64,000 bases of DNA. Origin: Aquila chrysaetos chrysaetos (taxonomy: Eukaryota > Chordata > Aves > Accipitriformes > Accipitridae). The stretch's first letter is position 1. Each line of letters begins with the position of its first letter. Positions 1,149 to 38,757 of the stretch are shown one piece after another. The stretch is from contig NW_024470413.1 of NCBI RefSeq assembly GCF_900496995.4, positions 1 to 64,000 of the forward strand, written 5' to 3'. The notes under the pieces were generated by a model that saw nothing but the letters and a program-made list of their open reading frames with translations, was not told where the DNA came from and ran no database searches. A program made the position numbers and the translations under genes.

Positions 1149-1345
1149 TCATCCCAGCCGCAAGAGGAGCATGGGGGATGGTGAAGAGGGGTTAACAGTC
1201 ACTAAAGAACAACTCTGCCGCTCCTTCCTCCTCACACTTCTCCCCTGCTCCAGCCTGGATCTTCTCCATGGGATCCCACCATATTTGCAGTCAAGGCTAT
1301 GTGGTGTTCATTCCTTTCTGTCTTACCTTTCTCCTTTATACTCAC

Positions 1346-1990
1346 AGAATCACAGACATGTTGAGATTGGAAGGGACCTCTGGAGATCATCTAGTTCAAC
1401 CCTCTCAGCTGAGGAAGAGTCAGCTAGAGTATGTTGCTCAGCACCTTATCTAGGTGGGTATGGAGTACCCTCATGGATGGGGATTCCACAACCTCTCCGG
1501 GAAGCCTGTTCCAGTGTTTAACCACCCACACAGTCAAACACAGTTTTCTGGGGTTCAGATGGAATTTTACACACATTAATGAGATCCCCCTCAGCCTTTT
1601 CTTCTCCAGGCTGAACAGTCCCACATCTCTCAGCCTTTCCTCCTAGGAAAGATGCTCCAGTCCCTTAAACCAGCTTTGTGGCCCTTTGCTGCACTTGCTT
1701 GAGTAGGTCAACAAGTATGATGCACTGGGCAGCGCAGCACTTGACACAGCACTCCAGCTGTGGCCTCAGCAGTGCTGAGTAGAGGGGAAGGATCACCTCC
1801 CTCCATCTGCCAGCAAGGCTTCTCCTCATGCAGCCCAGGAGGCTGTTGGCCTTTGCCATGAGGGTGCATTGCTCGCTCATGCTCAGCTCCTTGTCCTCTG
1901 GGACCTCAAGGTCCTTCTCTGTGGAGCTGCTATCTTGCTGGTCGACCCCCAGCATGACGTCCACACTGGGGTTGAATCACAGGCTGTCCT
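1346..1990 (-). mobile_element. CR1 LINE ORF2 C-terminus and 3' end (arm A)
   Basis: On the minus strand, translation gives the CR1 ORF2 tail: 'EKDLEVPEDKELSMSEQC', then 'WREVILPLYSALLRPQLE', 'QVQQRATKLV', and in another frame 'RLRDVGLFSLEKKRLRG' and 'HWNRLPGEVVESPS'. The 3' end reads 'ggaccactctg'-like sequence and ends in the 'tctgtgattctgtga' tail typical of CR1. Stops and frame changes show that it is dead. Its counterparts are at 38,122-38,722 (+) in arm B and 45,660-46,290 (+) in copy 3, which makes it a three-way comparison point for the duplicon. Confidence 0.88.
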
Positions 1991-4260
1991 CCCCGAGGGA
2001 CTTGTCCTTCTTGAAGATGAGCTTCACCTCTGGCACAAGTCCCACAGTGCTGCAGAGTCACCTGGGACAGCAAAGCCCTCTCCTGCCAGGGCTGCACAGC
2101 CCAGGCCTCTTTCTCTCTGGCCTTGGGGACTGCAGCTTTTGGTCTCGCTGTGAGAACCTCATTCATCAGGATGTTGCCACCTGCCATCTACTCCAGCATG
2201 CATAGGCTGTGAAGCAAAGCCTTTCTAGACAAGGGCTCCCATCTCTTGGTAGAAGGTTTCTTTGTTACAAGTCTGCCCTTGGCCCTGGAGCCACATCTGA
2301 GGTGCTGCAGTCCTAATGGGCATCAAAGCCCACCGCCTGGGGCACAGACAGCGGGAGCCTTGTGTGCCATAACAGAGCTGTGACATGAGTGGAATAAGCT
2401 GAGGTGAGGAAGGACAGCTCCCACGGGTTATTTGGTGAATGGAGGCACAACATGCTTAGGAGAGACCGACACAGAAGGTGAGAAGTGGAGGATGCCTTGT
2501 GTGATGTCAGGGCAGCTCAGATATATGTGGACATTCTCTATGGGACAGGCAACGGATGAGGTGGGAGCTTGTGTGTGGGTCAGCTTCTGAATAAGCCATC
2601 CAGTCTGATGCTCACCTGGACCTGGAACTCCCAGAAGAGGAAGAGCTGGTCAGGGATGCGAAGGCCAGTGTCAGCCTTGGCCATAGTGACCATGAAATTG
2701 GAGTCTCCCAGATCCCCAGGGATGGGAAGAAGGAGAGTAGCAGAGAGCAGACCCTGCACATCAGGGAATGAGAATTTGGCCAATTGAGGGCACTGGCAGG
2801 TGGGGTCTAAGATGGCAGTGTCAGGGCGCTGAGCAGCATCACCTGCGGCCTCCACCCACACCTCTGTCCATGGGCCCAGGAGATCATTGAAGCCTAGGCC
2901 TGAGTTTCAGCCCCAGCTTGATCTCTGCTGTAGGGCTACTGGTCTCCAGACACAGCCATAGACACAGCCTTGCCTGTCCATGGACCTTGTTGATTCGGAC
3001 TTGCAGGCTCACTTCCCAGCTTGATTCTTCATGCAATGCACAATGGAAGGACTCTGTGGCGCTCCAAGTGCCAGACCCCAGCTGATTCATGGAGGCCTCG
3101 GGCCTTTCTGCTTCCTTTCTTCCTGTCATCACTTGGTCAGGTTTTGGGAGGAGAGGAAGGAAAAGCAGGGGTGGTTTCCAGGTGCCAATGATTGAACTGG
3201 GGGAGCAGAGCCATCACATGTGAAGTGATCTAAAGGCTACGCCAGTTCAAAACTCTTATCTTCTGCTGTTATTTCAGAGACCTTAAATCTTCAGCAGGAA
3301 CCTGGCAGCTCTGAGATCCCTCCATCTCCCTCTCTTGTAGCAATTAAGCTGATAGGACCCCAGTCACAGGCTTGCTTTCAACTCTGTTTGCAGCCTAAAG
3401 CACCCCATTGGTCGGTAGATACGCCAGGAAACTTGCATAAGGAACCCACTCCTGTGGAGAAGAAGGTGGATGTTCCCAGGAATCTCAGGAGGCGTGGCAT
3501 ACCCATAGCTGTGCTCAGGGAGCTGGTCAAATGCCTCGTCTCCATTGCTGTAATGGTGGCCTAGATGCCTGGTTCATGTGTCAGCTCTCTCTGTGGCTGC
3601 TGACATTTACTGAGCAACCTGGTCTGACCTCAAGAGCTGGCCCTGCTTGGAGCTGGGCATTGGACTACAGACCATCTGAGCTCCCTTCCACCCTGAATTA
3701 TCTGATCAGCGTATGATGTAGAGACCCTCGCCTCCAACTCGATCTCTTCTTGTACAGCGTGTGCCAAGGCACAGGCTCCTGGAAGGGCTGGTGGGAGAGA
3801 GACTGTTGGGGAGTGTCTAGTCCAGCCTCCAGGCTGGCTGTGACTTTGAGGAGCAAAGAAGAGCTCCAAAGGTGGAGATCACAACAACACTCCTCCTAGT
3901 CCATTTTATTTTTCCTAAGGCTCAGCCTAAAGCTCCCAAGAGGCAAGTTGTGGCTGTTGCCTCCGTCATATCATTGGCCACTGCAGAAGAGAGCTTGGCT
4001 CCACCATCTCTCCAGGTAGCTGTAGGCTCTTCTTAGGTGGCCCCAGGCCTCCTTCAGCAGGCTGGAGAGGCCCAGTTCCCTCAGACTCTCCTCGCAGCTC
4101 GTGCCTTAAGCCCCTCACTCCACCTTGGCAGACCTCCTCCGGACCTTCTCCAGTTTCTCCACTCTCCTTTTGAAATGGGAGGCCCACTGGCTCATATGGC
4201 ATCATCCTGCTGCCCAGGCCCTTCTCCTCAGAGCACTCCTTAGCTGGCCAGGTCTCTACC
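1991..4260. other. arm A non-coding stretch, part missing from arm B
   Basis: No gene is recognised. The part from 1,991 to about 3,152 is absent from arm B but present, inverted, in copy 3 (44,571-45,650). This shows that arm B lost it rather than arm A gaining it. The remainder (3,153-4,260) matches arm B at about 36,980-38,095. The minus strand at 3,966-4,409 is open for 147 codons and has a CR1 3'UTR-like character ('GVRGLRHELRGESEGTGPL'), so it is not a gene. Confidence 0.6.
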
Positions 4261-4768
4261 CATGCTGCTGCATGGAGTTGTTGGGCAGCTTGTGGGTTGG
4301 GATAAAAACAGATAATAGGTGAATGAAAACAGATTAAAACAAATATAAACCCAACCCAACAGGCAATGCAAAGGCAATCACTTCCCACCTCCCACAAGCA
4401 GAGTGACACCCAGCCAGTCTCCCTTCAACAGACACCTTGAACGACAGGAAACTCCACCGCCTTCTTCCTCTGCCCGAGCTTTTATTGCTGAGCATGATGT
4501 CATATGGTATGGAATATCCCTTTGGTCAGATGGGGTCAGCTGGCCTGGCTGTGTCCCATTGCCCCCCAACTTCTCGCCCACCCCCAGCCTACTCACTGGG
4601 AGGGAGCAGAGTGAGAAACAGAGAAGGCCTTGACGCTGTGCAAACACTCTTCAGCAACAGCCGAAACGCTGGTGTGTTATCAACACTGTTCTAGGCACCA
4701 ATGCAAAACAGAACACCATAGGGGCTGCTACGAAGAAAGTGAACCCCACCCCAGCCAGACCCAGGACA
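4260..4768 (-). mobile_element. ERVL-type LTR (arm A, uninterrupted)
   Basis: Read on the minus strand it starts 'TGTCCTGGGTCTGGCTGGGG' at 4,768. It then runs through a 'gcagcccctatggtgttctg' block, a 'ttccataccatatgacatca' block and an 'aataaaagctcgggcag' segment, and ends in a T-rich part near 4,270. This is the order seen in avian ERVL LTRs. The arm B copy (36,033 onward) is split by a younger LTR, and the empty target of that insertion is preserved here at 4,604-4,609 ('gagcag'). Confidence 0.75.
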
Positions 4769-5039
4769 CTTGAACCAGGGTCCCAAAAAGGGACACAGTA
4801 GTGTACAGGTGGCTGACAAGTGATGGGCAGGGGAGGCAATATTTTCCCTCACTCTTTTGGCAAGGCTCTTCTTTCTACACTCCAGGACACTGCTGGCCAC
4901 CTCTGCTACCAGGTAGCCCTGGATCGTGTGGACCACTGCTGGATCGTGTTTTGCCTTCTGTCCCCCAGCACCACCAGGGCTGTTTCCTCAGAGGTGCTCT
5001 CTGGCCAGGCAGCCCCCTTCCCCTGCCACTGCAGGCTGT

Positions 5040-5543
5040 TAGTCTACCCCAGGCACAGGATCTGGCCTTTGTCTTTCTTGTATCTCACAACGTTCCTGAC
5101 AGGACAGTCCTTCTGCCTGTTAGGTTCCCCTGAATGGCATCCCAAGGCACAGGAATGGTCCTCCCAATATAGTGCCATCAACAAACGTGGTGAGAGTTGC
5201 CTCCTCCGGGTCATGGATACAGGTGTAAAACTGCACAGCGCCCAGGAGAGTCCCCTGTGCAGCCCCACAATGTGCCAATATGTCCCACTGGCCTCCAGGT
5301 ACGGTATGGCCCCTTCACCACTGCTCTCAGCCTCATCATCCAACTGGTGTTTTGCCCATCTCTTTGTCTATCCATCCAGACTGTAATGTCCTAACTTGAG
5401 TAGAAGAATATTGAGGGAGACTGTGCCAAAAGTCTTGCTGAAGTGGAGGTAAACAACATCCACCATGCTCCCCTCATGCACAAATGCACTTCCTTCATCA
5501 TGACGGCAATCAGGTTGGCAAGGCATGATTTACCGTTGGGAAG
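5040..5543 (-). mobile_element. CR1 reverse-transcriptase fragment (arm A)
   Basis: The minus strand encodes 'MVDVVYLHFSKTFGTVSLNI', clearly the CR1 RT palm segment 'VDVVYLDFSKAFDTVS'. Here the acidic residues are His and Gly, so the catalytic motif is destroyed. Upstream on the same strand 'NLIAVMMKEVHLCMRG' fits the preceding 'CLTNLI..YDE' CR1 block. Downstream the frame decays. The arm B counterpart is 35,268-35,770 (+). Confidence 0.8.
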
Positions 5544-5672
5544 TCCATGCTGATGTTGTCCTTTTTTACGTGCCCAGAAATGTCACCCATGAGGAGTCAT
5601 TTAATGGCACGCTCCTCATCAAAGTGACCTTGTACAGCCTGTGGTTCCCTGGGTTGCATTCTTGGCCTCTTT
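5544..5672. other. 129-bp segment missing from arm B at an LTR insertion
   Basis: In arm A this segment joins the CR1 RT fragment to the 'aggagacgggcgcaacttgg' block. In arm B the same two flanks are separated instead by the LTR at 34,304-35,267, and this 129-bp stretch is gone. It has no coding signal of its own. Confidence 0.75.
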
Positions 5673-7800
5673 AGGAGACGGGCGCAACTTGGGTTTGTCT
5701 TCACTCTCAAGAGACCCCTACCAATTCCATGACCCTTTACAGCGGACATTCCAAAGAAATATCAGTCTTTCCCTGTGACTGCGTTACCACTATTCTGCCT
5801 GTTCTTTGGTGTATTTAGTTTCTCTAGTCTTTCATGTAGGTACACCTGTCCTGACAAAATGACCATTTGTGAAAGTCATCTTTTCAGATGCAGACTGCCT
5901 AGGCAAAGGCCCTTTCCATTATGCTCCACTTCTTCCCTTACTCTTTGTTCATCAAGATACCTCTCCCCTATGCAGCTGCTTTGAGCTTCAGGGAGTTAAA
6001 AGCTTGCCTGTCTTCCAGTAGTCTAACTGTCTCTTTAGCCAATTCTTTAATTGTGTTTATATCTAACTTTTTCATATCTATCACAAACATTTCTCATAAC
6101 ATTATCCTCTGTAGACAGGCAGCCTCATTAGGGGCAGCTGGACTTTGCATATGGTTGAGGAGTGTGACTTATTGTTTATGAAACTTGATTATGATTTTCT
6201 TTGCTTTGCTTGCAAACAGGAAAAATTCTTCTGGGCCTGTGTGCAGCCAGTTCTCTAAGGAGAGCAGGGGGGAGATGATGCAATGGAGCTGTAACATCCA
6301 ACTGTAGAGATCAGTGGAGGAAACTGAGGCAAGGAACAGAGATGTAAGCCCCAGGTGGCCAATGTCAGAAGTGGTGAGGTTTGATAGGTGAGGAGCAAGG
6401 TTGTCCATACAGTGTCAGAGCTCAAGGGACTGCTTTTCCTAGCTGTCCAGACCTCCTGAGGAGACACTCTGGATCATTATCACTTGGAGAATGCTTCTAT
6501 CACCTCTTCTCTAAATTGAAGAGTAAGAAAAACTATTCTTTAAAAGGAAAAAAAATCATGGGTATAGGTGCAGTTTGAAATCTTCCTCCTTAACTACACT
6601 ATGAAATTTTTCTAATTAGCTGTACAAGTCTTGAAGACTTGGAGAAAATTGCAGGAAGAAACAAGGCTCGTTAGAGCTTTCTGTATTTTAATGAGCCCCA
6701 TGGTGTGTTTGAGGCTGAGTCCATGGACCTCAGCTACTGAGAGCAGACTGAAAGAAACTTCTCAAGAAGCCAAAGTCAGAAGCAAAGTACCTTGAAGCAT
6801 TAATGGGCCCCACTGAGGTGAGGGCCATTACTGACAAAGCCTCCCCAGGGACTCGTTAGAGCAGATAACTGGAGGCTGTGATTGCAGGTAGGCAAAAGCA
6901 CTGTGAAGGTGGCTCTAATGCTGAGAAAATATTTGGTTTGTTTTATGCAGCAGAAAGGCCAAGCCCTGATCTCCAGGCCTTGGGCAGACAGATTCTGTCC
7001 CTCACAGGTGAGTCAGGGCTCTTCCTGGGGGCAGCAAGATGTGAGGGTGAGCAATGCCAAGAGTAGGAAAACTGTGCAACACCTCTTGGCCACCCCAAGC
7101 AGGGGTGAGGAAGAAACTAAGTCCAGAGCCTCAAAACAAGTTTTACCTGGTAGGCCTCAGTGGCAGAAGCTACTGTCAAATCCAAGATGACAAATCCCTT
7201 GGACCTGTTCTGCCTTTCAGCCTTGCCAGAGCACTTGGCCATCTCTACTGCAGGCTGTCATAACCTGTCCTATGCTTTACCTCCTTCCCTTCAGGCTGTT
7301 GATGTCCATCTTGCTTTCCCAGCTAGCTCTCACCCCAGCATTTCTGTTCCTTCACTGATGTCTCTCCAGCCTGGCTGGATTTTCCTTGCAACACAACACC
7401 ATGTGCTGAACCAAGGCTCTCTCTGGGTGACCTCTTGCACCACAAGGCTACCCTTTGAGTGACATTTCTTTCTCAACACATCCAGTCTGAACCTTTCAAG
7501 CTGCACTTTGCGCAGGTTTCCTTCTCTTCCCACTACCAAGAAAAGCTCCACCATCTCTGAAGCCACCCTTCACGCAGGTGCGCTCTACTGCTATAGTGCC
7601 CCGAGCCTCCACTTCACCAAGCTAAATAAGCCCAAGTCCCTCAGCCTCTCCAAAGAGGCCCCATCCTGGCAGATGTCCTCTGGGACCGCTTCAGTTCTTC
7701 CCCACTCCTCCAGACCAGGGAACCCCACACCCAGACACACTAGTCCAGATGTGGCCACACCAGTGCTGAGGCCAGAGGGATGAGAACAGCCTTGCCTGGG
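5673..7800. other. arm A non-coding stretch
   Basis: Matched in reverse complement by about 32,150-34,303. No gene is recognised. The segment at about 7,380-7,790, read on the minus strand, contains a 'gaggctgagggacttgggct' block followed by UTR-like sequence, suggesting another decayed CR1 3' region. Open frames here differ between the arms and show no domain. Confidence 0.5.
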
Positions 7801-8520
7801 TGGCCACGCCTCTCCTAATACAGCCCTGCTGCTGGCTGTCAGATTCTCAGGCAGAAGTGATGTCATAGTCAACAGACCAGCCATGTGTCTTGCTGATGGC
7901 CAATGACCCCAAAAGTTTGGAGATTCCAATGACCTCACAGTCGCCTTCATGGCCATGTGCCTCCTGCTGGCCTATGAGCTTCTCAGACATAATTGGTGTC
8001 AGAGTGATAGCCCAACCCATCAGCCTTCTTGTGGCATGTCAGCTGACCAGCCAGAAGTAACCTCACCATGATCTTCCAAGCCACATGCCTGCTGCTGTCC
8101 TGTCACGTACTCAGGCAGAAGAGGTGTGAGAACCCATATCCCAGCCCTCGTCCTGGACGAGCCTACCAGGTACTTGGGGAAAGGGATTCTCACAATCAAG
8201 ACACTTTTGCTGGCCTGGCAGATGTGAGCGTAGAAGCACATATGCCAGCCATGAGTCACGGGCTGACCTATCAGCTCCTTCAGAAAGAAGTGACCTCACA
8301 GTCCCTTTCCCAGCCATGGTCCTGCTGCTGGCCTATCAACTCCAAGGACAGAAGGGACCTCCCAGCCACCTTCCCAGCCTTGTGCCTCCTGCTGTCCCAT
8401 GAGATCCTGAGGCACAGCTGACCTCACCATAGCATTCCCACCCATCTCCTCCTTGTGGCCTACGAGCTCATCAGGTGCAGGTCACCTCACATTCCTGTCG
8501 CAATGCCATGTGACCTTTCT
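7800..8520. repeat. diverged tandem repeat, about 75-80 bp period (arm A)
   Basis: The plus strand repeats a loose unit: 'gaagtgacctcacagtccct', then 'cagccatgtgcctcctgctg', then 'gcctatgagctcctcaggca'. I count roughly seven to nine recognisable units with many substitutions and indels. A stray unit sits near 9,245-9,275. The arm B counterpart is about 31,450-32,150. The function is unknown. Confidence 0.6.
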
Positions 8521-8559
8521 GGGACCTCACGATCCCTGCCCCGGTCCCAGGGGGCCAAA

Positions 8560-9040
8560 CAGCTTACGTAAGGTTGAGGAGAGGTGACCAAGATGAGGGC
8601 AGTAGAGCGTGGGAAAGAGAGCTTCAGGGATTCGGTGTTGAGGTTGGAGCTTAGGGATTAGAGCTCACCTTTCAGGGTTGGGGATTAGGCAAAGGCTTAG
8701 GGAGAGAGTTTGGTTCTCCTGCTGAGGTTCCCTGGCTAGTGTTTAAGGTGTGGGCTAGCATGGTGGGTCAGGGTTTTGTTTAGGGCTGAGGTGAGGGCTA
8801 GGATTAAGGCCAACATGTTAATACTAGGGGTAGAGGCTGGGGGCTAGGGTGAGCAACCGGGTAAGTGTAAGGGTAAGGGGTTATGGGTTTGGGATTTGGC
8901 TTAGATGTAAGCTTTGAGGTTAGGGATAGCCTAAGCTCAGTTAGGTTAGTAACGGTGGATTACTGTCAGGGGGAGGAGAAGTATTTAGGGGTAGGGTTAG
9001 GTCTTAAGCTTACTAGTTAGAGATAGTGTAAGGGCTTAAC
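8560..9040 (+). repeat. G/T-rich telomere-like degenerate block (arm A)
   Basis: The plus strand is dominated by variants of TTAGGG and TAGGG, for example 'ggttagggatag' at about 8,921, 'taggggtagggttagg' at about 8,986 and 'ggggattaggc' at about 8,681. They are interspersed with other T/G-rich words and have no strict period. The arm B counterpart (about 30,930-31,400) shows the complementary CCCTAA-rich strand. This could be an ancient interstitial telomere-like tract or a G-rich minisatellite. I cannot decide which. Confidence 0.45.
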
Positions 9041-9619
9041 AGGAATGTTTTCACAGCAATGTCCCCTTAGCTCATTTTACCTCTTCAAAATCTTTTGTGT
9101 CTGTTGGTCAAGGCCCTCTTCCCTCCCCCAAATCCCCCATTTCTTTTGCCCAGGCTCCTCCTGACCTCCCCAAATGTGTCACCTTGTTGAGGGTGGCTTC
9201 CTGATGACATTCACGACCTCAGAGTATCTCTCTCCCTGCTGCTGCTGACCAGTCAGAAGTGACCTCCCAGCCACCATCCAAGGGGACATAGTGTCTGCTG
9301 TGCTTGAGAGGCCTCTTCACAGCCTACCCAGCAGCACTGGAGGAAGGTGATGCCCTGCACCACCCCAGAGGTTCCCTGCCTGCAAACCCACTCGTAGATC
9401 CAAAGGGTTCCTGCATCACTTTTCCCACATGGGTGCTTCAGTTACCACAGGGCAGCTTGGATGCCATGGCCACCTCTGTGCGGGCAACCGAATCAAGACC
9501 AGAATGTAAATTTTAGAAAAATGTGGAAGCCTACGCAGAAAAGGAAATCTATGTAATAGCAGAAAAAGTCTTAATTTCCAGCTTTTAATGATCTTTTATG
9601 AAATTTTGCTGATCACGGA

Positions 9620-10110
9620 GAGATGCTGCTGGGTTCCCAGAGGACTTTGTACCACTGATGGAATTCGTTCCTGATCATCCAGCCAACTTCCCATGCACTG
9701 CATCATCCATGTCTTCAGTCCAGATGTCAACAATCCGCCCTAAGGAGACTATGGGAAACCACATCCAAGGACTTGCAAAAGTCCAGGTACACAGCATGCC
9801 CTTCTTTCCCCTCCCACATGGGTTCAGCAACCCTTTTCTTGTCCTTCAAGCGATGGAGATGGCTGCAAGAGCATTTTCCCTGTCACCTTGCCAGGGACTG
9901 AGGTGAAGGTGGCCAACCTGTCACACTCCCAATCCGCCTTTTTGCCCTTTTTGAAGATGGGTTTGAGATTTGCCTTTTCTGAGGATCTTGGAACCTGCCT
10001 GATCTCTCTGCCCCTTCCAAGATGTTTGAGAGGCCTCGTGATGACACCAGCCAGCTCCACCAGCACCTCTCTGCTGCATTGCACACCAAAAGCCGTCTTC
10101 ATATCCCACA
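9620..10110 (-). mobile_element. CR1 RT N-terminal fragment (arm A)
   Basis: Minus-strand translation gives 'LVELAGVITRPL', 'KANLKPIFKKGKKADW', 'LATFTSVPGKVTGKMLLQ' and, in a shifted frame, 'CKSLDVVSHSLLRADC'. These correspond to the CR1 blocks 'LADVIARPLS', 'KANVTPIFKKGKKEDPGNYRP', 'SVPGKVMEQILL' and 'FSKAFDTVSHNIL'. It is truncated and frameshifted. The arm B counterpart is about 29,800-30,330 (+). Confidence 0.85.
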
Positions 10111-10166
10111 CTTGCAGGGGAGTGCCCAGGACACCGCACGTGCCAGTCCAGGTCCTCTGGACTGGT

Positions 10167-10830
10167 TCAAAAGAGAACCAGAAGCGATCTCCTCCTGCAG
10201 ACCCACAACTCCCATGGGCTCTCCGTGCAGCTCACAGCTTCCCTGAGCATTTTTCTCAGTGTCCCCCTGCCCCAACCTTTCTAGTCCACAGGCTGTAGAT
10301 GAGAGGATTGAACAGGGATGTGAGGATGGTGTAGATAAGGGGCTTTGTCAACCTATCTCAGCAGGGCTCTTCTGGGCATCACACACCCAAGGATGATGGT
10401 GTCGTAGAAAAGAGTGGCACTAGTGAGGCGGGCGGAGCAGGTGGAGAAGTCTTTCTGCCTGCCCGCGCCGGATGGGAGACGTTCCTCAGGGTGGCAGCTC
10501 TGATGCACACAGGATGACCATGTGAACAGGAAGGGGAGGATGGGATCTAAAAAGCAGGTCATGACAGCAAAGAGCATGAGTGTCACAGTGCCAGTGTGTG
10601 AAAGCTCCAGCAATGGGGTGAAATCACAGAAGAAGTGGTCCACTCCACTGGGGCCACAGAACAGTATCTGGGACATGACTGAAATGATTACTGTAGCTGA
10701 CAGAAATCCCCCTAGCGAAGGAGACAGACCTGGCAGTTCCTGAGTCTTGTAGAGAGCAGGGGGTGGCACACAGCCCAGTACTGATCGTAGGATGTAGTCA
10801 CCAGCAGTAAACACTCTGCACATGCAAAAG
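10167..10830 (-). pseudogene. olfactory receptor pseudogene, non-OR14 class II (arm A)
   Basis: Minus-strand translation recovers the second half of a class II olfactory receptor: a TM4/ECL2 region 'VIISVMSQILFCGPSGVDHF' followed by 'FCDFTPLLELSHTGT', TM5 'LFAVMTCFLDPILPFLF', the 'SGAGRQKDFSTC' intracellular loop 3/TM6 motif, and, after a stop and a frame shift, TM7 'LIYTILTSLFNPLIYSLW' with the NPxxY-like motif. A further shift gives 'GTLRKMLREAVSC', ending at a TGA at 10,167-10,169. No convincing TM1-TM3 is visible. The arm B copy shares the stop and both frame shifts, so it was dead before duplication or has been homogenised. The loop sequence differs clearly from the OR14-like genes here, so it belongs to another receptor family, which I cannot name. 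Confidence 0.8.
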
Positions 10831-15063: not shown

Positions 15064-15086
15064 TGCTCCACACCCAGAGGCAGCAG

Positions 15087-16278: not shown

Positions 16279-16279
16279 G

Positions 16280-28200: not shown

Positions 28201-29099
28201 TGGGAACCCCAGGTGGTGTAGCATTGAACGGGCTTTCTACCTGAATGCAGCAAAGCATGCAGACCCCATCCATAGAAAACAGTCTCCTCTTTTGGTCATC
28301 CAAGCTACTATAGGATTTTCTTACAAGGAACAACTCTACTCATTGTCTCAACAGTCAAACAGAAATGATGTTTTTATGAGAATGTTTTGCTGCACGGTTA
28401 GATACAGGCAAGGCCACGCAGGAGGCATGATGTCCAGTACCGAGTGGGACCTGCCTGCAGGCTCTTGTGTGATAATATGCTGCTGAGGTTGTCCTGTGGC
28501 CCAGGGATCTGTGCAGCATAACACAGGTTTGATGGCCGTGCTGGACGCGCAGCAGGGTGCAGCGCAGCGCAGCCCTAAGAACTCGATGTTCAATCTTTTT
28601 CTGGTCAGGACCAGTGTTCAGGTTTCCCTGTGAGAAGTCTGTGCTCCACTACGCTGCCACAGCTGAGATGCCGTGGCCCAGATGTGCACTGCCAGGAGGA
28701 GCTGGAGACCCGTGGCTTGTCACAGAACTGTGATGGTTTTGGATGAAATGAGACGTGGTGGGACAGCTTGCTGAGCTGTGGTGCTGCAATGGAGGGCTAC
28801 AGGCTCTGCCCAGGGAGCAGCAGGGAGGACGAGGACTATGTCCCCTGTATGAAGGGGAGGCTTGGATTTGTGGGGGTCTTCTCTGTGACAGACAACAGGT
28901 TGGACCAGCTTTTGTCATTTAGGATCAGAGCAGGAGTCAGCAGGAGTGACCTTGTGTTTGCAGATACAAACTGCTTGCTCAGGGAGAGGAAACAGAAAAG
29001 GTCTTTTGTCAGCAACCCCAGGAAGTCTCTAGGTTCATGAGCAGGCACTGTGGAAGGTGAGTGAGGAGGCAATGAGGCACTGGAGCTGTAAGGACCTCA
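25261..29099. other. arm B non-coding stretch
   Basis: High-similarity counterpart of arm A 10,831-14,590 and of noisy copy 3 sequence 54,430-58,988. Open frames of up to about 160 codons (for example 26,260-26,742 on the plus strand) are not conserved in frame in arm A, and I treat them as chance. Confidence 0.5.
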
Positions 29100-29767
29100 T
29101 GTCCCTTTGCATGTGCAGAGTGTTTACTGCTGGTGACTACATCCTACCATCAGTACTGGGCTGTGTGCCACCCCCTGCTCTCTACAAGACTCAGGAACTG
29201 CCAGGTCTGTCTCCTTCGCTAGGGGGATTTCTGTCAGCTACAGTAATCATTTCAGTCATGTCCCAGATACCGTTCTGTGGCCCCAGTGGAGTGGACCACT
29301 TCTTCTGTGATTTCACCCCATTGCTGGAGCTTTCACACACTGGCACTGTGACACTCATGCTCTTTGCTGTCATGACCTGCTTTTTAGATCCCATCCTCCC
29401 CTTCCTGTTCACATGGTCATCCTGTGTGCATCAGAGCTGCCACCCTGAGGAACGTCTCCCATCCGGCGCGGGCAGGCAGAAAGACTTCTCCACCTGCTCC
29501 TCCCGCCTCACTAGTGCCACTCTTTTCTACGACACCCTCATCCTTGGGTGTGTGATGCCCAGAAGAGCCCTCCTGAGATAGGCTGACAGAGCCCCTTATC
29601 TACACCATCCTCACATCCCTGTTCAATCCTCTCATCTACAGCCTGTGGACTAGAAAGGTTGGGGCAGGGGGACACTGAGAAAAATGCTCAGGGAAGCTGT
29701 GAGCTGCACGGAGAGCCCATGGGAGTTGTGGGCCTGCAGGAGGAGATCGCTTCTGGTTCTCTTTTGA
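29100..29767 (+). pseudogene. olfactory receptor pseudogene, non-OR14 class II (arm B)
   Basis: Plus-strand mirror of the arm A pseudogene: 'VIISVMSQIPFCGPSGVDHF' with 'FCDFTPLLELSHTG', then 'GRQKDFSTCSSRLT', a stop after 'MPRRALLR', then in another frame the TM7 block 'LIYTILTSLFNPLIYSLW', and in a third frame 'GTLRKMLREAVSC' ending at the TGA at 29,765-29,767. It carries the same lesions as arm A and only a few substitutions differ. The TM1-TM3 part is not recognisable. A short stretch upstream (29,048-29,110) also matches 61,707-61,770. Confidence 0.8.
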
Positions 29768-29799
29768 ACCAGCCCAGAGGACATGGACTGGCACGTGCG

Positions 29800-30330
29800 G
29801 TGTCCTGGGCACTCCCCTGCAAGTGTGGGATATGAAGACGGCTTTTGGTGTGCGATGCAGCAGAGAGGTGCTGGTGGAGCTGGCTGGTGTCATCACGAGG
29901 CCTCTCTCAAACATCTTGGAAGGGGCAGAGAGATCAGGCAGGTTCCAGGATCCTCAGAAAAGGCAAATCTCAAACCCATCTTCAAAAAGGGCAAAAAGGA
30001 GGATTGGGAGTGTGACAGGTTGGCCACCTTCACCTTGGGAGTGTTACAGGTTGGCCACCTTCACCTCAGTCCCTGGCAAGGTGACAGGGAAAATGCTCTT
30101 GCAGCCATCTCCATCGCTTGAAGGACAAGAAAAGGATTGCTGAACCCATGTGGGAGGGGAAAGAAGGGCATGCTGTGTACCTGGACTTTTGCAAGTCCTT
30201 GGATGTGGTTTCCCATAGTCTCCTTAGGGCGGATTGTTGACATCTGGACTGAAGACGTGGACGATGCAGTGCATGGGAAGTTGGCTGGATGATCAGGAAC
30301 GAATTCCATCAGTGGTAGAAAGTCCTCTGG
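29800..30330 (+). mobile_element. CR1 RT N-terminal fragment (arm B)
   Basis: Counterpart of 9,620-10,110, with 'VLVELAGVITRPLS', 'KANLKPIFKKGKKEDW' and 'TSVPGKVTGKMLLQ'. It differs from arm A by a 30-bp tandem duplication at about 30,010-30,066, where 'gttggccaccttcacc' occurs twice in a row. Confidence 0.83.
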
Positions 30331-30929
30331 GAACCCAGCAGCATCCCTCCGTGATCAGCAAAATTTCATAAAAGATCATTAAAAGCTGGAAATTAAGACT
30401 TTTTCTGCTATTACATAGATTTCCTTTTCTGCATAGGCTTCCACATTTTTCTAAAATTTACATTCTGGTCTTGATTCAGTTGTCCGCACAGAGGTGGCCA
30501 TGGCATCCAAGCTGCCCTGTGGTAACTGAAGCACCCATGTGGGAAAAGTGATGCAGGAACCCTTCGGATCTACGAGTGGGTTTGCAGGCAGGGAACCTCT
30601 GGGGTGGTGCAGGGCATCACCTTCCTCCAGTGCTGCTGGGTAGGCTGTGAAGAGGCCTCTCAAGCACAGCAGACAGTATATCCTCTTGGATGGTGGCTGT
30701 GAGGTCACTTCTGACTGGTCAGCAGGGAGAGAGATACTCTGAGGTCATGAAGGTCATCAGGAAGCCACCCTCAACAAGGTGACACATTTGGGGAGGTCAG
30801 GAGGAGCCTGGGCAAAAGAAATGGGGGATTTGGGGGAGGGAAGAGGGCCTTGACCAACAGACACAAAAGATTTTGAAGAGGTAAAATGAGTTAAGGGGAC
30901 ATTGCTGTGAAAACATTCCTGTTAAGCCC

Positions 30930-31400
30930 TTACACTATCTCTAACTAGTAAGCTCAAGCCCTAACGCTACCCCTAAATACTCCTCCTCCCCCTGACAGTA
31001 GTCCACCGTTACTAAACTAACTGAGCTTAGGCTATCCCTAACCTCAAAGCTTACATCTAAGCCAAATCCCAAACCCATAACCCATTACCCTTACACTTAC
31101 CCGGTTGCTCACCCTAGTCCCTAGCCTCTACCCCTAGTATTAACATGTTGCCCTTAATCCTAGCCCTCACCCCAGCCCTAAACAAAACCCTGACCCACCA
31201 TGCTAGCCCACACCTTAAACACTAGCCAGGGAACCTCAGCAGGAGAACCAAACTCTCTCCCTAAGCCTTTGCCTAATCCCCAACCCTGAAAGGTGAGCTC
31301 TAATCCCTAAGCTCCAACCTCAACACTGAATCCCTGAAGCTCTCTTTCCCACGCTCTACTGCCCTCATCTTGGTCACCTCTCCTCAACCTTACGTAAGCT
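30930..31400 (-). repeat. telomere-like degenerate block (arm B)
   Basis: Complementary copy of 8,560-9,040. The plus strand is rich in CCCTAA-type words such as 'atccctaacctc' and 'ccctagcctctacccct'. Similarity to arm A is very high by eye. Confidence 0.45.
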
Positions 31401-31449
31401 GTTTGGCCCCCTGGGACTGGGGCAGGGATCGTGAGGTCCCAGAAAGGTC

Positions 31450-32150
31450 ACATGGCATTGCGACAGGAATGTGAGGTGACCTGTACCTGATGAGCTCGTA
31501 GGCCACAAGGAGGAGATGGGTGGGAATGCTATGGTGAGGTCAGCTGTGCCTCAGGATCTCATGGGACAGCAGGAGGCACAAGGCTGGGAAGGTGGCTGGG
31601 AGGTCCCTTCTGTCCTTGGAGTTGATAGGCCAGCAGCAGGAAGATGGCTGGGAAAGGGACTGTGAGGTCACTTCTTTCTGAAGGAGCTGATAGGTCAGCC
31701 CTTGACTCATGGCTGGCATATGTGCTTCTATGCTCACATCTGCCACTGTCTCTGACAGGCCAGCAAAAGCGTGTTGATTGTGAGAATCCCTTTCCCCAAG
31801 TACCTGGTAGGCCCGTCCAGGATGAGGGCTCGGATATGGGTTCTCACACCTCTTCTGCCTGAGTACGTGACGGGACAGCAGCAGGCACGTGGCTTGGAAG
31901 ATCATGGTGAGGTTACTTCTGGCTGGTCAGCTGACATGCCACAAGAAGGCTGATGGGTTGGGCTATCACTCTGACACCAATTATGTCTGAGAAGCTCATA
32001 GGCCAGTAGGAGGCACATGCCCATGAAGGCAAGTGTGAGGTCACTGGAATCTCCAGTGTCGTGGGGTCATTGGCCATCAGCAGACACATGGCTGGTCTGT
32101 TGACTATGACATCACTTCTGCCTGAGAATCTGATAGCCAGCAGCAGGGCT
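31450..32150. repeat. diverged tandem repeat, about 75-80 bp period (arm B)
   Basis: Counterpart of 7,800-8,520. It carries a small insertion near 31,748-31,760 relative to arm A. Confidence 0.55.
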
Positions 32151-34303
32151 GTATTCGGAGAGGCGTGGCCACCCAGGCAAGGCTGTTCTCGTCCCTCTGG
32201 CCTCGGCACTGGTGTGGCCACATCTGGACTAGTGTGTCTGGGTGTGGGGTTCCCCGGTCTGGAGGAGTGGGGAAGAACTGGAGCGGTCCGAGAGGACATC
32301 TGCCAGGATGGGGCCTCTTTGGAGAGGCTGAGGGACTTGGGCTTCTTTAGCCTGCTGAAGTGGAGGCTCAGGGCGCTATAGCAGTAGAGCGCACCTGCGT
32401 GAAGGGTGGCTTCAGAGATGGTGGAGCCTTTCTTGGTAGTGGGAAGAGAAGGAAACCTGCGCAAAGTGCAGCTTGGAAGGTTCAGACCGGATGTGTTGAG
32501 AAAGAAATGTCACTCAAAGGGTAGCCTTGTGGTGCAAGAGGTCACCCAGAGAGAGCCCGGATCAGCCCATGGCGTTGTGTTGCAAGGAAAATCCAGCCAC
32601 GCTGGGGAGACATCAGTGAAGGAACAGAAATACTGGGGTGAGAGCTAGGTGGGAAAGCAAGATGGACGTCAACAGCCTGAAGGGAAGGAGGTAAAGCATG
32701 GGACAGGTTATGACAGCCTGCAGTAGAGATGGCCAAGTGCTCTGGCAAGGCTGAAAGGCAGAACAGGTCCAAGGGATTTGTCATCTTGGATTTGACAGTA
32801 GCTTCTGCCACTGAGGCCTAACAGGTAAAACTTGTTTTGAGGCTCTGGACTTAGTTTCTTCCTCACCCCTGCTTGGGGAGGCCAAGAGGTGTTGCACAGT
32901 TTTCCTACTCTTGGCATTGCTCACCCTCACATCTTGCTGCCCCCAGGAAGAGCCCTGACTCACCTGTGAGGGACAGAATCTGTCTGCCCAAGGCCTGGAG
33001 ATCAGGGCTTGGCCTTTCTGCTGCATAAAACAAACCAAATATTTTCTCAGCATTAGAGCCACCTTCACAGTGCTTTTGCCTACCTGCAATCACAGCCTCC
33101 AGTTATCTGCTCTAACGAGTCCCTGGGGAGGCTTTGTCAGTAATGGCCCTCACCTCAGTGGGGCCCATTAATGCTTCAAGGTACTTTGCTTCTGACTTTG
33201 GCTTCTTGAGAAGTTTCTTTCAGTCTGCTCTCAGTAGCTGAGGTCCATGGACTCAGCCTCAAACACACCATGGGGCTCATTAAAATACAGAAAGCTCTAA
33301 CGAGCCTTCTTTCTTCCTGCAATTTTCTCCAAGTCTTCAAGACTTGTACAGCTAATTAGAAAAATTTCATAGTGTAGTTAAGGAGGAAGATTTCAAACTG
33401 CACCTATACCCATGGTTTTTTTTCCTTTTAAAGAATAGTTTTTCTTACTCTTCAGTTTAGAGAAGAGGTGATAGAAGCATTCTCCAAGTGATAATGATCC
33501 AGAGTGTCTCCTCAGGAGGTCTGGACAGCTAGGAAGAGCAGTCCCTTGAGCTCTGACACTGTATGGACAACCTTGCTCCTCACCTCTCAAACCTCACCAC
33601 TTCTGACCTTGGCCACCTGGGGCTTACATCTCTGTTCCTTGCCTCAGTTTCCTCCACTGATCTCTACAGTTGGATGTTACAGCTCCATTGCATCATCTCC
33701 CCCCTGCTCTCCTTAGAGAGCTGGCTGCACACAGGCCCAGAAGAATTTTTCCTCTTTGCAAGCAAAGCAAAGAAAATCATAATTAAGTTTCATAAACAAC
33801 TGTCACACTCCTCAACCATATGCAAAGTCCAGCTGCCCCTAATGAGGCTGCCTGTCTACAAGGGATAATCTTATCAGAAATGTTTCTGATGAATACGAAA
33901 AAGTTAGATACAAACACAATTAAAGAATTGGCTAAAGAGACTATTAGACTACTGGAAGACAGGCAAGCTTTTAACTCCCTGAAGCTCAAAGCAGCTGCAT
34001 AGGGGAGAGGTATCTGAATGAACAAAGAGCAAGGGAAGGAGAGAAGTGGAGCATAATGGAAAGGGCCTTTGCCTAGGCAGCCTGCATCTGAAAAGATGAC
34101 TTTCACAAATGGTCATTTTGTCAGGACAGGTGTAACTACATGAAAGACTAGAGAAACTAAATACACCGAAGAACAGGCAGAACAGTGGTAACGCAATTAC
34201 AGGGAAAGACTGATATTTCTTTCGAATGTCCTCTGTCAAAGGGTCGTGGAATTGGTAGGGGTCTCTTGAGAGTGAAGACAAACCCAAGTTGCGCCCGTCT
34301 CCT
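32151..34303. other. arm B non-coding stretch
   Basis: Counterpart of 5,673-7,800. No gene is recognised on either strand. Confidence 0.5.
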
Positions 34304-35267
34304 TGTGATAAATGAATTTAGTCTCAAACAGGATTCCGATCAAAGTTTACAATTTATTAAATGAATAAAGGCAAGCAAACAGCGCTGCGTGGATCAGCAG
34401 TCTCTGCTCTACCAAGATGCACGCTGTGGAAAACAACCCAGCTTCTTTTATAGTCTAACACTAGTTACATCGTGTCCTTTCGAAGACTCTCCTCATTGGC
34501 TGAGGGGTCTTCAGTTCTCCTAGAAACTTCTCGAACTCTCCTCATTAGCTGAGGGGTCTTCAGTTCTCCTAGAAACTTCTCAAACTCTCCTCATTGGCTG
34601 AGGGGTCTTCAGTTCTCCTAGAAACTTCTCGAACTCTCCTCATTGGCTGAGGGGTCTTCAGTTCTCCTAGAAACTTCACGGACTCTCCTCATTGGCTGAG
34701 GGGTCTTCAGTTCTCCTAGAAACTTCTCAGACTCTCCTTATTGGCTGAGGGGTCTTCAGTTCTCCTAGAAACTTCTCGAACTCCTCCTCATTGGCTGAGG
34801 GGTCTTCTATGCAATGTATCTCCTCACTGCTCCTCGCTGCTCGGGCATGACAGCAGACATCCTGTGCGACAGGCGACACCCTGCACAGCACCAGCTGTGG
34901 CCACCAAACCCCAAGCAAGTTTGCAACAGACACCCCCCCCCCCCAACAAATGCATATAACAAATTGCTTACACACTGCCACTTCAATACACCCTCTATTC
35001 ATACATAGTAAGATCACCCCGTTCATAACCTCACTTAATACTATGATAAATGCCTCAGTTCTCCCCTAGGATCTCTTGTTTAACACTGCGCAGTTAACAA
35101 CAAAACCGGTTTTGGGCTGGCAAAAAAGAACTATATACATATCATCTGTTTCCTCCTGGCCTGTGGTTATACAAGGACCGACCAAATGGTTAAAGTGAGG
35201 GTCACATTTTATTATGCGGCCCTAGCATTGTTTATATTGACACGAATCAGATGAACACATTTCACAC
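34304..35267 (-). mobile_element. solo ERV LTR with internal VNTR (arm B)
   Basis: Bounded by 'TGTGATAAATG' and 'CATTTCACA', a perfect terminal inverted pair (TGTGA...TCACA). Minus-strand orientation is shown by a TATAAAAG box (34,445-34,452) and an AATAAA signal (34,353-34,358) close to the U5 end. It matches the LTR at 49,758-50,493 but is longer because it carries seven copies of a unit of about 49 bp. There is no target duplication: the left flank is 'cgtctcct' and the right flank 'cttcccaa'. Compared with arm A, 129 bp is missing at the site. No internal retroviral genes remain. Confidence 0.88.
34481..34808. repeat. 49-bp VNTR, seven units, inside the LTR
   Basis: The unit runs from 'cgaactctcctcattggctg' through 'aggggtcttcagttctccta' to 'gaaacttct' and is repeated almost perfectly. 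The last unit diverges after 'ggtcttcta'. The related LTR at 49,758 has a single unit (about 49,975-50,022). The expansion is therefore specific to this insertion. Confidence 0.92.
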
Positions 35268-35770
35268 TTCCCAAGGGTAAATCAGGCCTTGCCAACCTGA
35301 TTGCCGTCATGATGAAGGAAGTGCATTTGTGCATGAGGGGAACATGGTGGATGTTGTTTACCTGCACTTCAGCAAGACTTTTGGCACAGTCTCCCTCAAT
35401 ATTCTTCTGCTCAAGTTAGGACAGTACAGTCTGGATGGATAGACAAAGAGATGGGCAAAACACCAGTTGGATGATGAGGCTGAGAGCAGTGGTGACGGGG
35501 CCATACCCTACCTGGAGGCCAATGGGACATATTGGCGCATTGTGGGGCTGCACAGGGGAACTCTCCTGGGCGCTGTGCAGTTTTACACCTGTATCCATGA
35601 CCCGGAGGAGGCAACTCTCACCACGTTTGTTGGTGGCACTATATTGGGAGGACCATTCCTGTGCCTTGGGATGCCATTCAGGGGAACCTAACAGGCAGAA
35701 GGACTGTCCTGTCAGGGACTTTGTTGAGATACAAGAAAGACAAAGGCCAGATCCTGTGCCTGGGATAGAC
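35268..35770 (+). mobile_element. CR1 reverse-transcriptase fragment (arm B)
   Basis: Counterpart of 5,040-5,543. The plus strand encodes a 'VDVVYLHFSKTFGTVSLNIL'-like palm segment with the same lost aspartates, although one residue in 'YLHFS' differs by substitution. It is dead. Confidence 0.78.
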
Positions 35771-36032
35771 TAACAGCCTGCAGTGGCTGGGGAAGGGGGC
35801 TGCCTGGCCAGAGAGCACCTCTGAGGAAACAGCCCTGGTGGTGCTGGGGGACAGAAGGCAAAACACGATCCAGCAGTGATCCACGGCTACCTGGTAGCAG
35901 AGGTGGCCAGCAGTGTCCTGGAGTGTAGAGAGAAGAGCCTCGCCAAAAGACGGGGAAATTATTGTCTCCCCTGCCCATCACTTGTCAGCCACCTGTACAC
36001 TACTGTGTTCCTTTTTGGGACCCTGGTTCAAG

Positions 36033-36970
36033 TGTCCTGGGTCTGGCTGGGGTGGGGTTCACTTCCTTCGTAGCAGCCCCTATGGTGTTCTGTTTTGCAT
36101 TGGTGCCTAGAACAGTGTTGGTAACACACCAGTGTTTTAGCTGTTGCTGAATAGTGTTTGCACAGCATCAAGGCCACCTCTGTTTCTCACTCTGGTCTGT
36201 GGGAACATATATAGCTAATGGTCACAAGAGCATGCCAGACGCCTTTAGAAGACCTTGGACAGAATAAACAAGAAGACAAAAATAAGAAAGATACGAATTA
36301 GAAGAACACAGGTGCGCATTCCACGATAAAGGGAACTTGGCACAAAGAACCTCAATTCGCCAGTTTATCTTGACCAATTAGACTGAGACAAGTTTTGCAT
36401 GTTTTAGTTAGTATAACCTATTATGTCTTATGTTTATGCGTATGTACAGTGTTGATATAAACCAATCATTAAGTGTAACTAGGCACGTGGACAGCACGTG
36501 AATAATGTGTGTAACCAATAATAAAATAGCTAAAGGCATGTACGGATGTAACCAATGTATAAAATTATGTCTGATGCTCTAGTAAAGGGTCTTCAACTAT
36601 GATCATATTGATCTGTCATTGAGTCCATGATTATGCTCCTGCACTGCTCCCTCCCAGCAAGTAGGCTGGGGGTGGGCGAGAAGTTGGGGGGCAATGGGAC
36701 ACAGCCAGGCCAGCTGACCCCATCTGACCAAAGGGATATTCCATACCATATGACATCATGCTCAGCAATAAATGCTCAGGCAGAGGAAGAAGGCGGTGGA
36801 GTTTCCTGTCATTCAAGGTGTCTGTTGAAGGGATACTGGTTGGGTGTCACTCTGCTTGTGGGAGGTGGTAAGTGATTGCCTTTGTATTGCCTGTTGGGTT
36901 GGGTTTATATTTGTTTTAATCTTTTTTCATTCACCTATTATCTGTTTTTATCCCAGCCCACAAGCTGCAC
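36033..36970 (+). mobile_element. ERVL-type LTR (arm B) split by a younger LTR
   Basis: Starts 'TGTCCTGGGTCTGGCTGGGG' at 36,033 and corresponds to the minus-strand LTR ending at 4,768 in arm A. It is interrupted at 36,198-36,643 by another LTR and resumes at 36,650 with 'cctcccagcaagtagg'. Confidence 0.75.
36198..36643 (+). mobile_element. solo LTR, probably class II (ERVK-like), nested
   Basis: Begins 'TGTGGGAACATATATAGC' and ends 'ATTATGCTCCTGCA' (TG...CA). It is flanked by 'ctggtc' (36,192-36,197) and 'ctgctc' (36,644-36,649), a 6-bp target duplication with one change. The empty site in arm A, read on the minus strand, is 'ctgctc' (4,604-4,609). A 6-bp duplication is typical of class II ERVs. 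AATAAA (36,521-36,526) and 'gtataaaatt' (about 36,558) fit promoter/polyA parts. It is absent from arm A, so it inserted after the inverted duplication (or was lost from A by conversion). Confidence 0.85.
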
Positions 36971-36979
36971 AACAACTCC

Positions 36980-38121
36980 ATGCAGCAGCATGGGTAGAGA
37001 CCTGGCTGGCTAAGGAGTGCTCTGAGGAGAAGGGCCTGGGCAGCAGGATGATGCCATATGAGCCAGTGGGCCTCCCATTTCAAAAGGAGAGCAGAGAAAC
37101 TGGAGAAGGTCCGGAGGAGGTCTGCCAAGGTGGAGTGAGGGGCTTAAGGCACGAGCTGCGAGGAGAGTCTGAGGGAACTGGGCCTCTCCAGCCTGCTGAA
37201 GGAGGCCTGGGGCCACCTAAGAAGAGCCTACAGCTACCTGGAGAGATGGTGGAGCCAAACTCTCTTCTGCAGTGGCCAATGATATGACAGAGGCAGCAGC
37301 CACAACTTGCCTCTTGGGAGCTTTAGGCTGAGCCTTAGGAAAAATAAAATGGACTAGGAGGAGTGTTGTTGTGATCTCCACCTTTGGAGCTCTTCTTTGC
37401 TCCTCAAAGTCACAGCCAGCCTGGAGGCTGGACTAGACAATCCCCAACAGTCTCTCTCCCACCAACCCTTCCAGGAGCCTGTGCCTTGGCAGGCACACAC
37501 TGTACAAGAAGAGATCGAGTTGGAGGCGAGGGTCTCTACATCATACGCTCATCGGACAATTCAGGGTGGAAGGGAGCTCAGGTGGTCTATAGTCCAATGC
37601 CCAGCTCCAAGCAGGGCCAGCTCTGAGGTCAGACCAGGTTGCTCACTAAATGTCAGCATCCACAGAGAGAGTTGACACATGAACTAGGCATCTAGGCCAC
37701 CATTACAGCAATGGAGATGAGGCATTTGACCAGGTCCCTGAGCAAAGCTATGGGTATGCCATGCCTCCTGACATTCCTGGGAACATCCACCTTCTTGTCC
37801 ACAGGTATGGGTTCCTTATGCAAGTTTCCTGGCGTATCTGCAGACCAATGGGGTGCTTTAGGCTGCAAACAGTATTGAAAGCAAGCCTGTGACTGGGGTT
37901 CTATCAGCTTAATTGCTACGAGAGAGGGAGATGGAGGGATCTCAGAGCTGCCAGGTTCCTGCTGAAGATTTAAGGCCTCTGAGATAGCAGCAGAAGATAA
38001 CTGTTTTGAACTGGCATAGCCTTTAGATCACTTCACATGTGATGGCTCTGCTCCCCCATTTCAGTCATTGGCACCTGGAAACCACCCTTGCTTTTCAGGA
38101 CAGCCTGTGATCCAACCCCAC
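36980..38121. other. arm B non-coding stretch with deletion junction
   Basis: Counterpart of 3,153-4,260. At about 38,098-38,101 ('gcttttcaggacagcctg') sequence matching arm A 3,152 joins sequence matching arm A 1,990, marking the loss of about 1.16 kb. Confidence 0.65.
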
Positions 38122-38722
38122 TGTGGATGTCATGCTGGGGGTCGACCAGCTAGAGAGCAGCTGCACAGAGAAGGACCTTGAGGTCCCAGAGGACAAGGAG
38201 CTGAGCGTGAGCGAGCAATGCCCCCTCATGGCAAAGGCCACCAGCCTCCTGGGCTGCATGAGGAGAAGCCTTGCTGGCAGATGGAGGGAGGTGATCCTTC
38301 CCCTCTACTCAGCACTGCTGAGGCCACAGCTGGAGTGCTGTGTCAAGTGCTGCGCTGCCCAGTGCATCATACTTGTTGACCTACTCAAGCAAGTGCAGCA
38401 AAGGGCCACAAAGCTGGTTTAAGGGACTGGAGCATCTTTCCTAGGAGGAAAGGCTGAGAGATGTGGGACTGTTCAGCCTGGAGAAGAAAAGGCTGAGGGG
38501 GATCTCATTAATGTGTATAAAATTCCATCTGAACCCCAGAAAACTGTGTTTGACTGTGAGGGTGGTTAAACACTGGAACAGGCTTCCCGGAGAGGTTGTG
38601 GAGTCCCCATCCATGGGGGTACTCCATACCCACTTAGATAAGGTGCTGAGCAACATACTCTAGCTGAGCCTTCCACAGCTGAGGGGGTTGAACTGGTCCC
38701 TTCCAATCTCAACATGTCTGTG
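38122..38722 (+). mobile_element. CR1 LINE ORF2 C-terminus and 3' end (arm B)
   Basis: Counterpart of 1,346-1,990. It reads 'MLGVDQLESSCTEKDLEVPE', 'WREVILPLYSALLRPQLE', 'GLFSLEKKRLRG' and 'HWNRLPGEVVESPSM', with the CR1 3' tail at about 38,710-38,722. It contains frame breaks. Confidence 0.88.
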
Positions 38723-38757
38723 ATTCGGTGAGTATAAAGGAGAAACAAATGAACGGA

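What the first reader, a model, noticed from the sequence alone, without database searches (positions are those of the whole stretch)
1308..38757. Approximately 37-kb inverted duplication with an intact OR14-like gene in each arm
Seen directly: all landmarks of 1,308-17,266 recur in reverse complement in 22,165-38,757 around a 4.9-kb unique spacer. Large palindromes with genes in the arms are best known from sex chromosomes and ampliconic clusters, where arm-to-arm gene conversion maintains copies. In birds the OR14 group is strongly amplified, and a palindrome would be a concrete mechanism for that expansion. A misassembled haplotype pair is less likely because arm B has private LTR insertions and a unique spacer.
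Basis: partly seen in the sequence, partly recalled or inferred. Interest (0 to 1): 0.78.

Follow-up and report, generated by a model that had tools for sequence, protein, structure and literature searches.

The report
Inverted smell-receptor gene pair, amplified repeatedly
A golden eagle scaffold carries two smell-receptor genes facing each other in mirror-image DNA blocks; the same mirrored arrangement recurs in a large receptor-gene cluster, and the genes there seem to swap their protein-coding part while keeping different upstream regions.

Summary
The inverted duplication is real: arm A 1,328-17,262, arm B 22,164-38,746, each with one intact OR14-like gene, convergent. Identity is 95.0% over 14,765 aligned bases: about 97% in the outer arms, a 68-97% mosaic around the ORs. 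A haplotype pair or foldback is very unlikely: the A-spacer-B core recurs at two places on another scaffold of the same, apparently golden eagle, assembly.

The spacer is not unique: four other near full-length copies at 96-98%. The main LTR insert is not private to arm B. The arms are ordinary members of a star-like duplication family. In the three A/B palindromes tested, partner genes are no more alike than unpaired ones.

Instead, the palindrome is one module of an amplified OR14 cluster. Its genes carry two old 5'-flank types, about 30% different, yet interchangeable coding exons: 86 fixed A/B differences in 372 flank sites, 1 in 855 coding-core sites, with excess shared polymorphism in the coding core and a 3' patch but not in the 5' flank. 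This points to cluster-wide gene conversion with an edge near the start codon: a known process, clearly displayed.

The parts
1328..17262 (+). arm A of the inverted duplication
   Evidence: self-BLAST; alignment
22164..38746 (-). arm B of the inverted duplication (reverse complement of A)
   Evidence: self-BLAST; alignment
15087..16043 (+). intact OR14-like gene A (coding exon, 318 codons plus stop), A-type 5' flank
   Evidence: close named relatives are OR14C36/14A16-like proteins of Aquila, best 93-95%
23359..24315 (-). intact OR14-like gene B (coding exon, 318 codons plus stop), B-type 5' flank
14708..15086 (+). A-type 5' flank; about 30% different from the B-type flank, the divergence ending near the start codon
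24316..24700 (-). B-type 5' flank
15109..15963 (+). core of the coding exon with 1 fixed A/B difference in 855 sites and excess shared polymorphism (inferred exchange tract)
16229..16809 (+). second stretch with excess shared polymorphism, 3' of the gene
17263..22163 (.). spacer; recurs with the module elsewhere in the genome (not unique)
34304..35266 (.). LTR-like insert in arm B (TGTGA...TCACA ends); shared with C33 arms, absent from arm A; described only
10353..10928 (-). remnant of a second OR (7tm_4 fragment, just below Pfam's cut-off), arm A
29057..29581 (+). remnant of a second OR (7tm_4 fragment), arm B
38757..44157 (.). degenerate minisatellite, 31-32-bp units, abutting the outer edge of arm B; also next to an arm on C33 (about 27-36 kb)
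44566..61000 (.). third, rearranged copy C in arm B's orientation, with an OR14-like gene near 52-53 kb; sequence from about 52 kb onward is of raw-read quality

Best explanation
The palindrome is one copy of an inverted module (OR gene, spacer, OR gene, convergent) that has been amplified by segmental duplication through a golden eagle OR14 (gamma-c) cluster. Its arms look alike because they belong to a cluster-wide duplication family, not because these two arms correct each other. On top of this, short ectopic gene-conversion tracts move the OR coding exon (and a patch 3' of it) between genes of two old 5'-flank types, so coding exons are shared across the cluster while upstream regions stay distinct. 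Shown: recurrence of the module, star-like arms, two flank types, near absence of fixed differences and excess shared polymorphism in the coding core. Inferred: the species name, that the exchange is gene conversion, that it has gone on after amplification, and that the flanks carry the promoters.
For: Window 14,659-26,665 matches C33:363306-351236 (96.1%, 12,079 columns) and 14,659-26,623 matches C33:548254-560260 (95.7%, 12,020 columns), each in one piece. Six convergent neighbouring OR loci 6.5-10.5 kb apart among 37 C33 loci; strand-shuffle mean 1.76, P=0.00115 (the distance range was chosen after I had looked at the list); spacer copies lie inside five of the six. OR-block tree: 4 A-type and 6 B-type blocks are separated by splits of 100%. 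Clean set of 4 A and 3 B: 5' flank 86 fixed of 372 sites, sites variable in both types 2 against 1.9 expected; coding core 1 fixed of 855, 16 against 2.8, P=8e-10; without CpG sites 10 against 1.5, P=3.5e-7; 3' patch 4 fixed of 535, 15 against 3.6. Fourfold sites: within A 0.033, within B 0.063, A-B 0.057. With ten sequences the flank rejects the coding-core tree (AU 7e-8) and the coding core rejects the flank tree (AU 0.006). Of 21 genes compared with the window's two flanks and two coding exons, 20 fall 10-21 points closer to one flank type (least clear 339k, 93 against 83%; the 21st, 111k, has only short flank matches), while coding exons differ by at most about 2.5 points between the two references.
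Against: The coding core alone does not reject separate A and B clades (AU 0.49), nor does the whole CDS (AU 0.82 for the constrained tree). The site test treats sites as independent although the sequences are related. Only 7 clean sequences; three indel-bearing B copies (353k, 558k, 110k) were dropped (with all 10: 87 fixed in the flank against 6 in the CDS, 1 shared against 27). In the clean set 8 fixed differences remain in the whole CDS, seven of them at its two ends (15096, 15108, 15964-16043). Not every pair is A/B: three of seven convergent pairs, the window's included, are B/B. One cis pair has a nearly identical coding end (0.005).
Confidence: 0.78

Rival explanations
1. A classical palindrome: the two arms are kept alike by arm-to-arm gene conversion within this inverted pair.
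For: Inverted arms, about 97% in the outer part; winB is the nearest or tied-nearest relative of winA in four of five arm segments, by at most 0.001; one other pair (716k/725k) has almost identical coding ends.
Against: winA is the nearest relative of winB in none of the five segments, and the three trees do not join the two arms as sisters; three cis OR pairs no closer than trans; 86-87 fixed flank differences between the two genes' types survive inside the arms; arms far from the >99.9% of human Y palindromes.
Confidence: 0.07
2. One-time chimera: B-type genes arose once when an A-family coding exon was joined to a foreign, much older 5' flank; the module then amplified, with no continuing exchange.
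For: A-like flanks also occur in three genes of scaffold C32 (86-89% to A, 71-74% to B), so the B flank is the odd one; sharp edge near the start codon; coding core does not reject separate clades.
Against: A-B silent distance is no larger than within B, and sites variable in both types exceed chance in the coding core and 3' patch but not in the 5' flank.
Confidence: 0.15
3. Assembly artefact: a foldback or two haplotypes joined head to head.
For: Small 65.7-kb scaffold from long reads of N50 19 kb (PMC8499043), shorter than the palindrome; the right end is of raw-read quality. No reads could be examined.
Against: Outer arms about 3% apart against 0.248% heterozygosity (PMC13326411, another subspecies); the same A-spacer-B core stands at two other places, one in each orientation; the scored 1-kb pieces of 1-51 kb are clean. 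No other scored spacer copy is above 98%.
Confidence: 0.04
4. Purifying selection alone keeps the coding exons alike while the flanks drift.
For: dN 0.043-0.045 against dS 0.084-0.089 between the two genes, so some constraint.
Against: A-B fourfold distance is no higher than within B; shared polymorphism; between C32 and A genes fourfold (0.096) and 5'-flank (0.089-0.144) distances agree, so silent sites are not intrinsically slow.
Confidence: 0.04

Closest known systems
Avian gamma-c (OR14) olfactory receptor clusters
   Same: Species-specific expansion; sequences of one species cluster together, for which independent expansion or concerted evolution was proposed (PMC2758906, passages; PMC6969042, passages including the abstract).
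   Different: In the passages seen, this rests on trees of OR sequences; here flanks and modules are compared base by base. No inverted module appears in the passages seen.
Sex-chromosome palindromes (human Y P6)
   Same: Inverted arms with a spacer (PMC3723533, passages).
   Different: Arms about 97%, not >99.9%; arms not clearly each other's closest relatives; spacer itself repeated; linkage unknown.
Interlocus gene conversion in segmental duplications
   Same: Exchange between paralogues in duplicated blocks (PMC3790853, PMC4467073, PMC10172114; search listing only).
   Different: Here the tract is nearly coextensive with one coding exon, with flank types kept apart.
Chicken chromosome 16 OR/SRCR region with the PO41 repeat array
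   Same: OR14J1-type genes, linked to MHC-Y; a GC-rich tandem repeat lies on the same chromosome (PMC4988538, passages).
   Different: Here a 31-32-bp repeat directly abuts the arm; SRCR linkage could not be tested.

Membership tests
OR14 / avian gamma-c olfactory receptors | seven-helix olfactory receptor domain over the full length | tested here: met
   PF13853 and PF00001 in both genes, E from 1e-37 to 8.6e-50
OR14 / avian gamma-c olfactory receptors | closest named relatives are bird OR14 proteins | tested here: met
   the listed 120 of 7,996 scored hits are mostly named OR14A16/C36/J1/K1-like from birds, some only 'olfactory receptor' or 'hypothetical', one without a name (gene A only)
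OR14 / avian gamma-c olfactory receptors | expression in olfactory neurons | not testable with these tools
   no expression data
Gene-converted sex-chromosome-type palindrome | arms nearly identical (>99%) | tested here: not met
   95.0% overall, about 97% in outer arms
Gene-converted sex-chromosome-type palindrome | arms are each other's closest relatives | tested here: not met
   winB nearest or tied for winA in 4 of 5 segments, winA nearest for winB in 0 of 5; cis genes no closer than trans
Gene-converted sex-chromosome-type palindrome | sex-chromosome linkage | not tested
Segmental duplication array | several copies longer than 1 kb at 90% identity or more | tested here: met
Concerted evolution by ectopic gene conversion | tract with lost fixed differences and excess shared variants, flanked by divergent sequence | tested here: met
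Concerted evolution by ectopic gene conversion | coding tree mixes the types with statistical support | tested here: inconclusive
   coding core does not reject separate clades, AU 0.49

The most novel reading that the evidence does not exclude
The cluster works as a coding-exon cassette system: OR coding exons are moved by gene conversion among loci that keep two (or more) old, distinct upstream regions, so receptor sequence and regulatory identity are uncoupled. The conversion edge would be set by the near-abrupt loss of homology at the exon's 5' border (possibly a splice acceptor), and the inverted module supplies many partners in both orientations.
Probability: 0.3. Interest if true: 0.62.

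Novelty: new member of a known kind. Interest (0 to 1): 0.42.

Why it matters
Whether the species-specific clustering of bird OR14 genes reflects independent expansion or concerted evolution was left open in PMC2758906 (passages). Flank types that are fixed while coding exons are shared give a direct handle on that question: coding-exon trees alone would mislead about gene age, and gene conversion can flaw tests of positive selection. It also suggests that module copy number, rather than arm-to-arm repair, explains this palindrome.

Tried and rejected
Rejected: A-type genes intact and B-type genes decayed. Searches suggested it, but two B copies (49k, 240k) only stop 11 codons early, and the mostly 1-bp indels of others (353k, 558k, 110k) may be read errors. 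Rejected: copy C as a proven pseudogene; it has 17 indels in its CDS (15 of 1 bp), in a stretch with raw-read-like indel rates. Rejected: 'each palindrome pairs an A with a B gene'; 3 of 7 convergent pairs are B/B. Not used for dating: the 87-93% arms of the C33 341-375 kb palindrome, because one arm carries many gaps. Rfam: no match at gathering scores. No molecular-clock date is given. The literature searches listed no paper that, by title or start of abstract, describes inverted OR14 modules; beyond the listings I saw only the passages or parts named.

Left open: counts of the outer arms, flank types and SRCR genes genome-wide; the tool that answers this was busy almost throughout.
Full report
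What is there. Self-BLAST confirms two inverted arms, A 1,328-17,262 and B 22,164-38,746, 14,765 aligned bases at 95.0%. Identity is uneven: about 97% across the outer arms, but between 68 and 97% in 150-column steps around the OR genes. Each arm has one full-length OR14-like gene, A 15087-16043 (+) and B 24315-23359 (-), pointing towards each other, and a remnant of a second OR. Copy C, in arm B's orientation, lies to the right beyond a 5.4-kb minisatellite.

Where it comes from. The window is G000:C121, a scaffold of 65,656 bases. Scaffolds C33 (894,992) and C32 (1,231,163) have exactly the contig lengths listed for Aquila chrysaetos chrysaetos OR proteins, and the assembly size fits bAquChr1.4 (PMC8499043, first of two parts of the text read). 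So the species is taken as the golden eagle; this is an inference from lengths.

Artefact very unlikely. The outer arms differ by about 3%, against 0.248% heterozygosity in the North American subspecies (PMC13326411, passages). The core A-spacer-B recurs in one piece on C33, once in each orientation, at 96.1% (window 14,659-26,665) and 95.7% (14,659-26,623). The closest other spacer copy is 98% (40 of 1851 candidates scored), so C121 is not an allelic copy of a scored place. The ratio of 1-bp gaps to mismatches against the best partner is 0.10 or more in 7 of the 46 scored 1-kb pieces up to 52 kb (largest 0.33; 1-1,000 and the minisatellite not scored) and 0.27-2.5 in the 12 scored pieces from 52 kb on; the palindrome is in the clean part. 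No reads were available to me.

A module, not a lone palindrome. The 3.58-kb spacer query has 66 listed matches, itself included; four others cover at least 95% of it at 96-98%, and four C33 places hold its last 2.75 kb at 92%. Among 37 merged OR loci on C33 (41 of the 126 matches), six neighbouring pairs 6.5-10.5 kb apart are convergent, none divergent and one same-strand; with strands shuffled the mean of convergent pairs is 1.76 and P is 0.00115. The distance range was set after I had looked at the list. A palindrome also spans C33 about 341.5-374.7 kb, arms 87-93%, one arm being rich in gaps. About 197 of C33's 895 kb were fetched in stretches of 8-10 kb, so module counts are lower bounds.

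Arms are not a pair. In three outer-arm segments winA-winB distance is 0.019-0.028, while other clean arms lie 0.015-0.033 from one or the other (exceptions: D289k 0.035-0.041 and the gap-rich B353k arm above 0.1). Against this reading, winB is the nearest or tied-nearest relative of winA in four of five segments, by at most 0.001; but winA is the nearest relative of winB in none, and the three trees do not join them as sisters. Best matches of 1-kb pieces alternate between the partner arm and C33. For three A/B palindromes, partner genes are no closer than others in CDS, 5' flank or 3' flank; of three B/B pairs, one (716k/725k) is closest to itself in the first 430 coding bases (0.005), the other two are not.

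Two upstream types, one coding pool. In an alignment of 13 OR blocks, 4 A-type and 6 B-type blocks are separated by splits of 100%. The types differ by 27-34% in the 380 bases before the ATG, within-type 2-6%. At the start codon the difference collapses: with 4 A and 3 B clean sequences there are 86 fixed differences in 372 flank sites and 1 in 855 sites of the coding core. Sites variable in both types number 2 against 1.9 expected in the flank, but 16 against 2.8 in the coding core and 15 against 3.6 in a patch 3' of the gene (16229-16809); removing CpG sites leaves 10 against 1.5 and 11 against 2.7. The two other 3' stretches were counted but not put to this test. Fourfold distance A-B (0.057) is like within B (0.063). 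With all ten sequences the picture is the same: 87 fixed and 1 shared in the flank, 6 fixed and 27 shared in the CDS. Two D blocks have A-like 5' and B-like 3' flanks, as recombinants would. Three genes on C32 have A-like flanks.

Reading. The simplest account is cluster-wide amplification of an inverted module with short ectopic conversions centred on the coding exon. The coding core by itself does not reject separate A and B clades (AU 0.49), though it rejects the flank tree (0.006) and the flank rejects the coding tree (7e-8); a one-time chimera followed by amplification is the main rival. In the A-type flank a pyrimidine-rich tract ending in CAG lies about 30 bases before the ATG; that it is a splice acceptor is a guess.

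Verdict. Observation essentially right; mechanism not supported; an ordinary kind of gene-family evolution with one notably sharp conversion boundary.

Noticed in passing
window 52000-64000 and C121 64001-65656: The right end of the scaffold has raw-read-like 1-bp indel rates; gene calls there (copy C) are unreliable.
   Followed up: yes
window 38757-44157; L028 6-6543: GC-rich degenerate minisatellite of 31-32-bp units abuts the outer edge of the arm in the window and, longer than 6.5 kb, on C33.
   Followed up: partly
window 49758-50493: Solo-LTR-like element in copy C with a 5-bp target duplication (ATCAC); the empty site is visible in the spacer at about 21,818-21,822.
   Followed up: partly
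window 5545-5672: At the place of arm B's LTR-like insert, arm A has 128 bases of other sequence, so it is not a simple empty site.
   Followed up: no
C33 about 166/175, 518/527 and 716/725 kb: Three further convergent OR pairs are B/B by flank type; the 716/725 pair differs by 0.5% over the first 430 coding bases.
   Followed up: partly
window 1328-1400 and 38690-38746: The outer arm edges lie in sequence that looks like the 3' end of a CR1 element (label recalled, no call).
   Followed up: no
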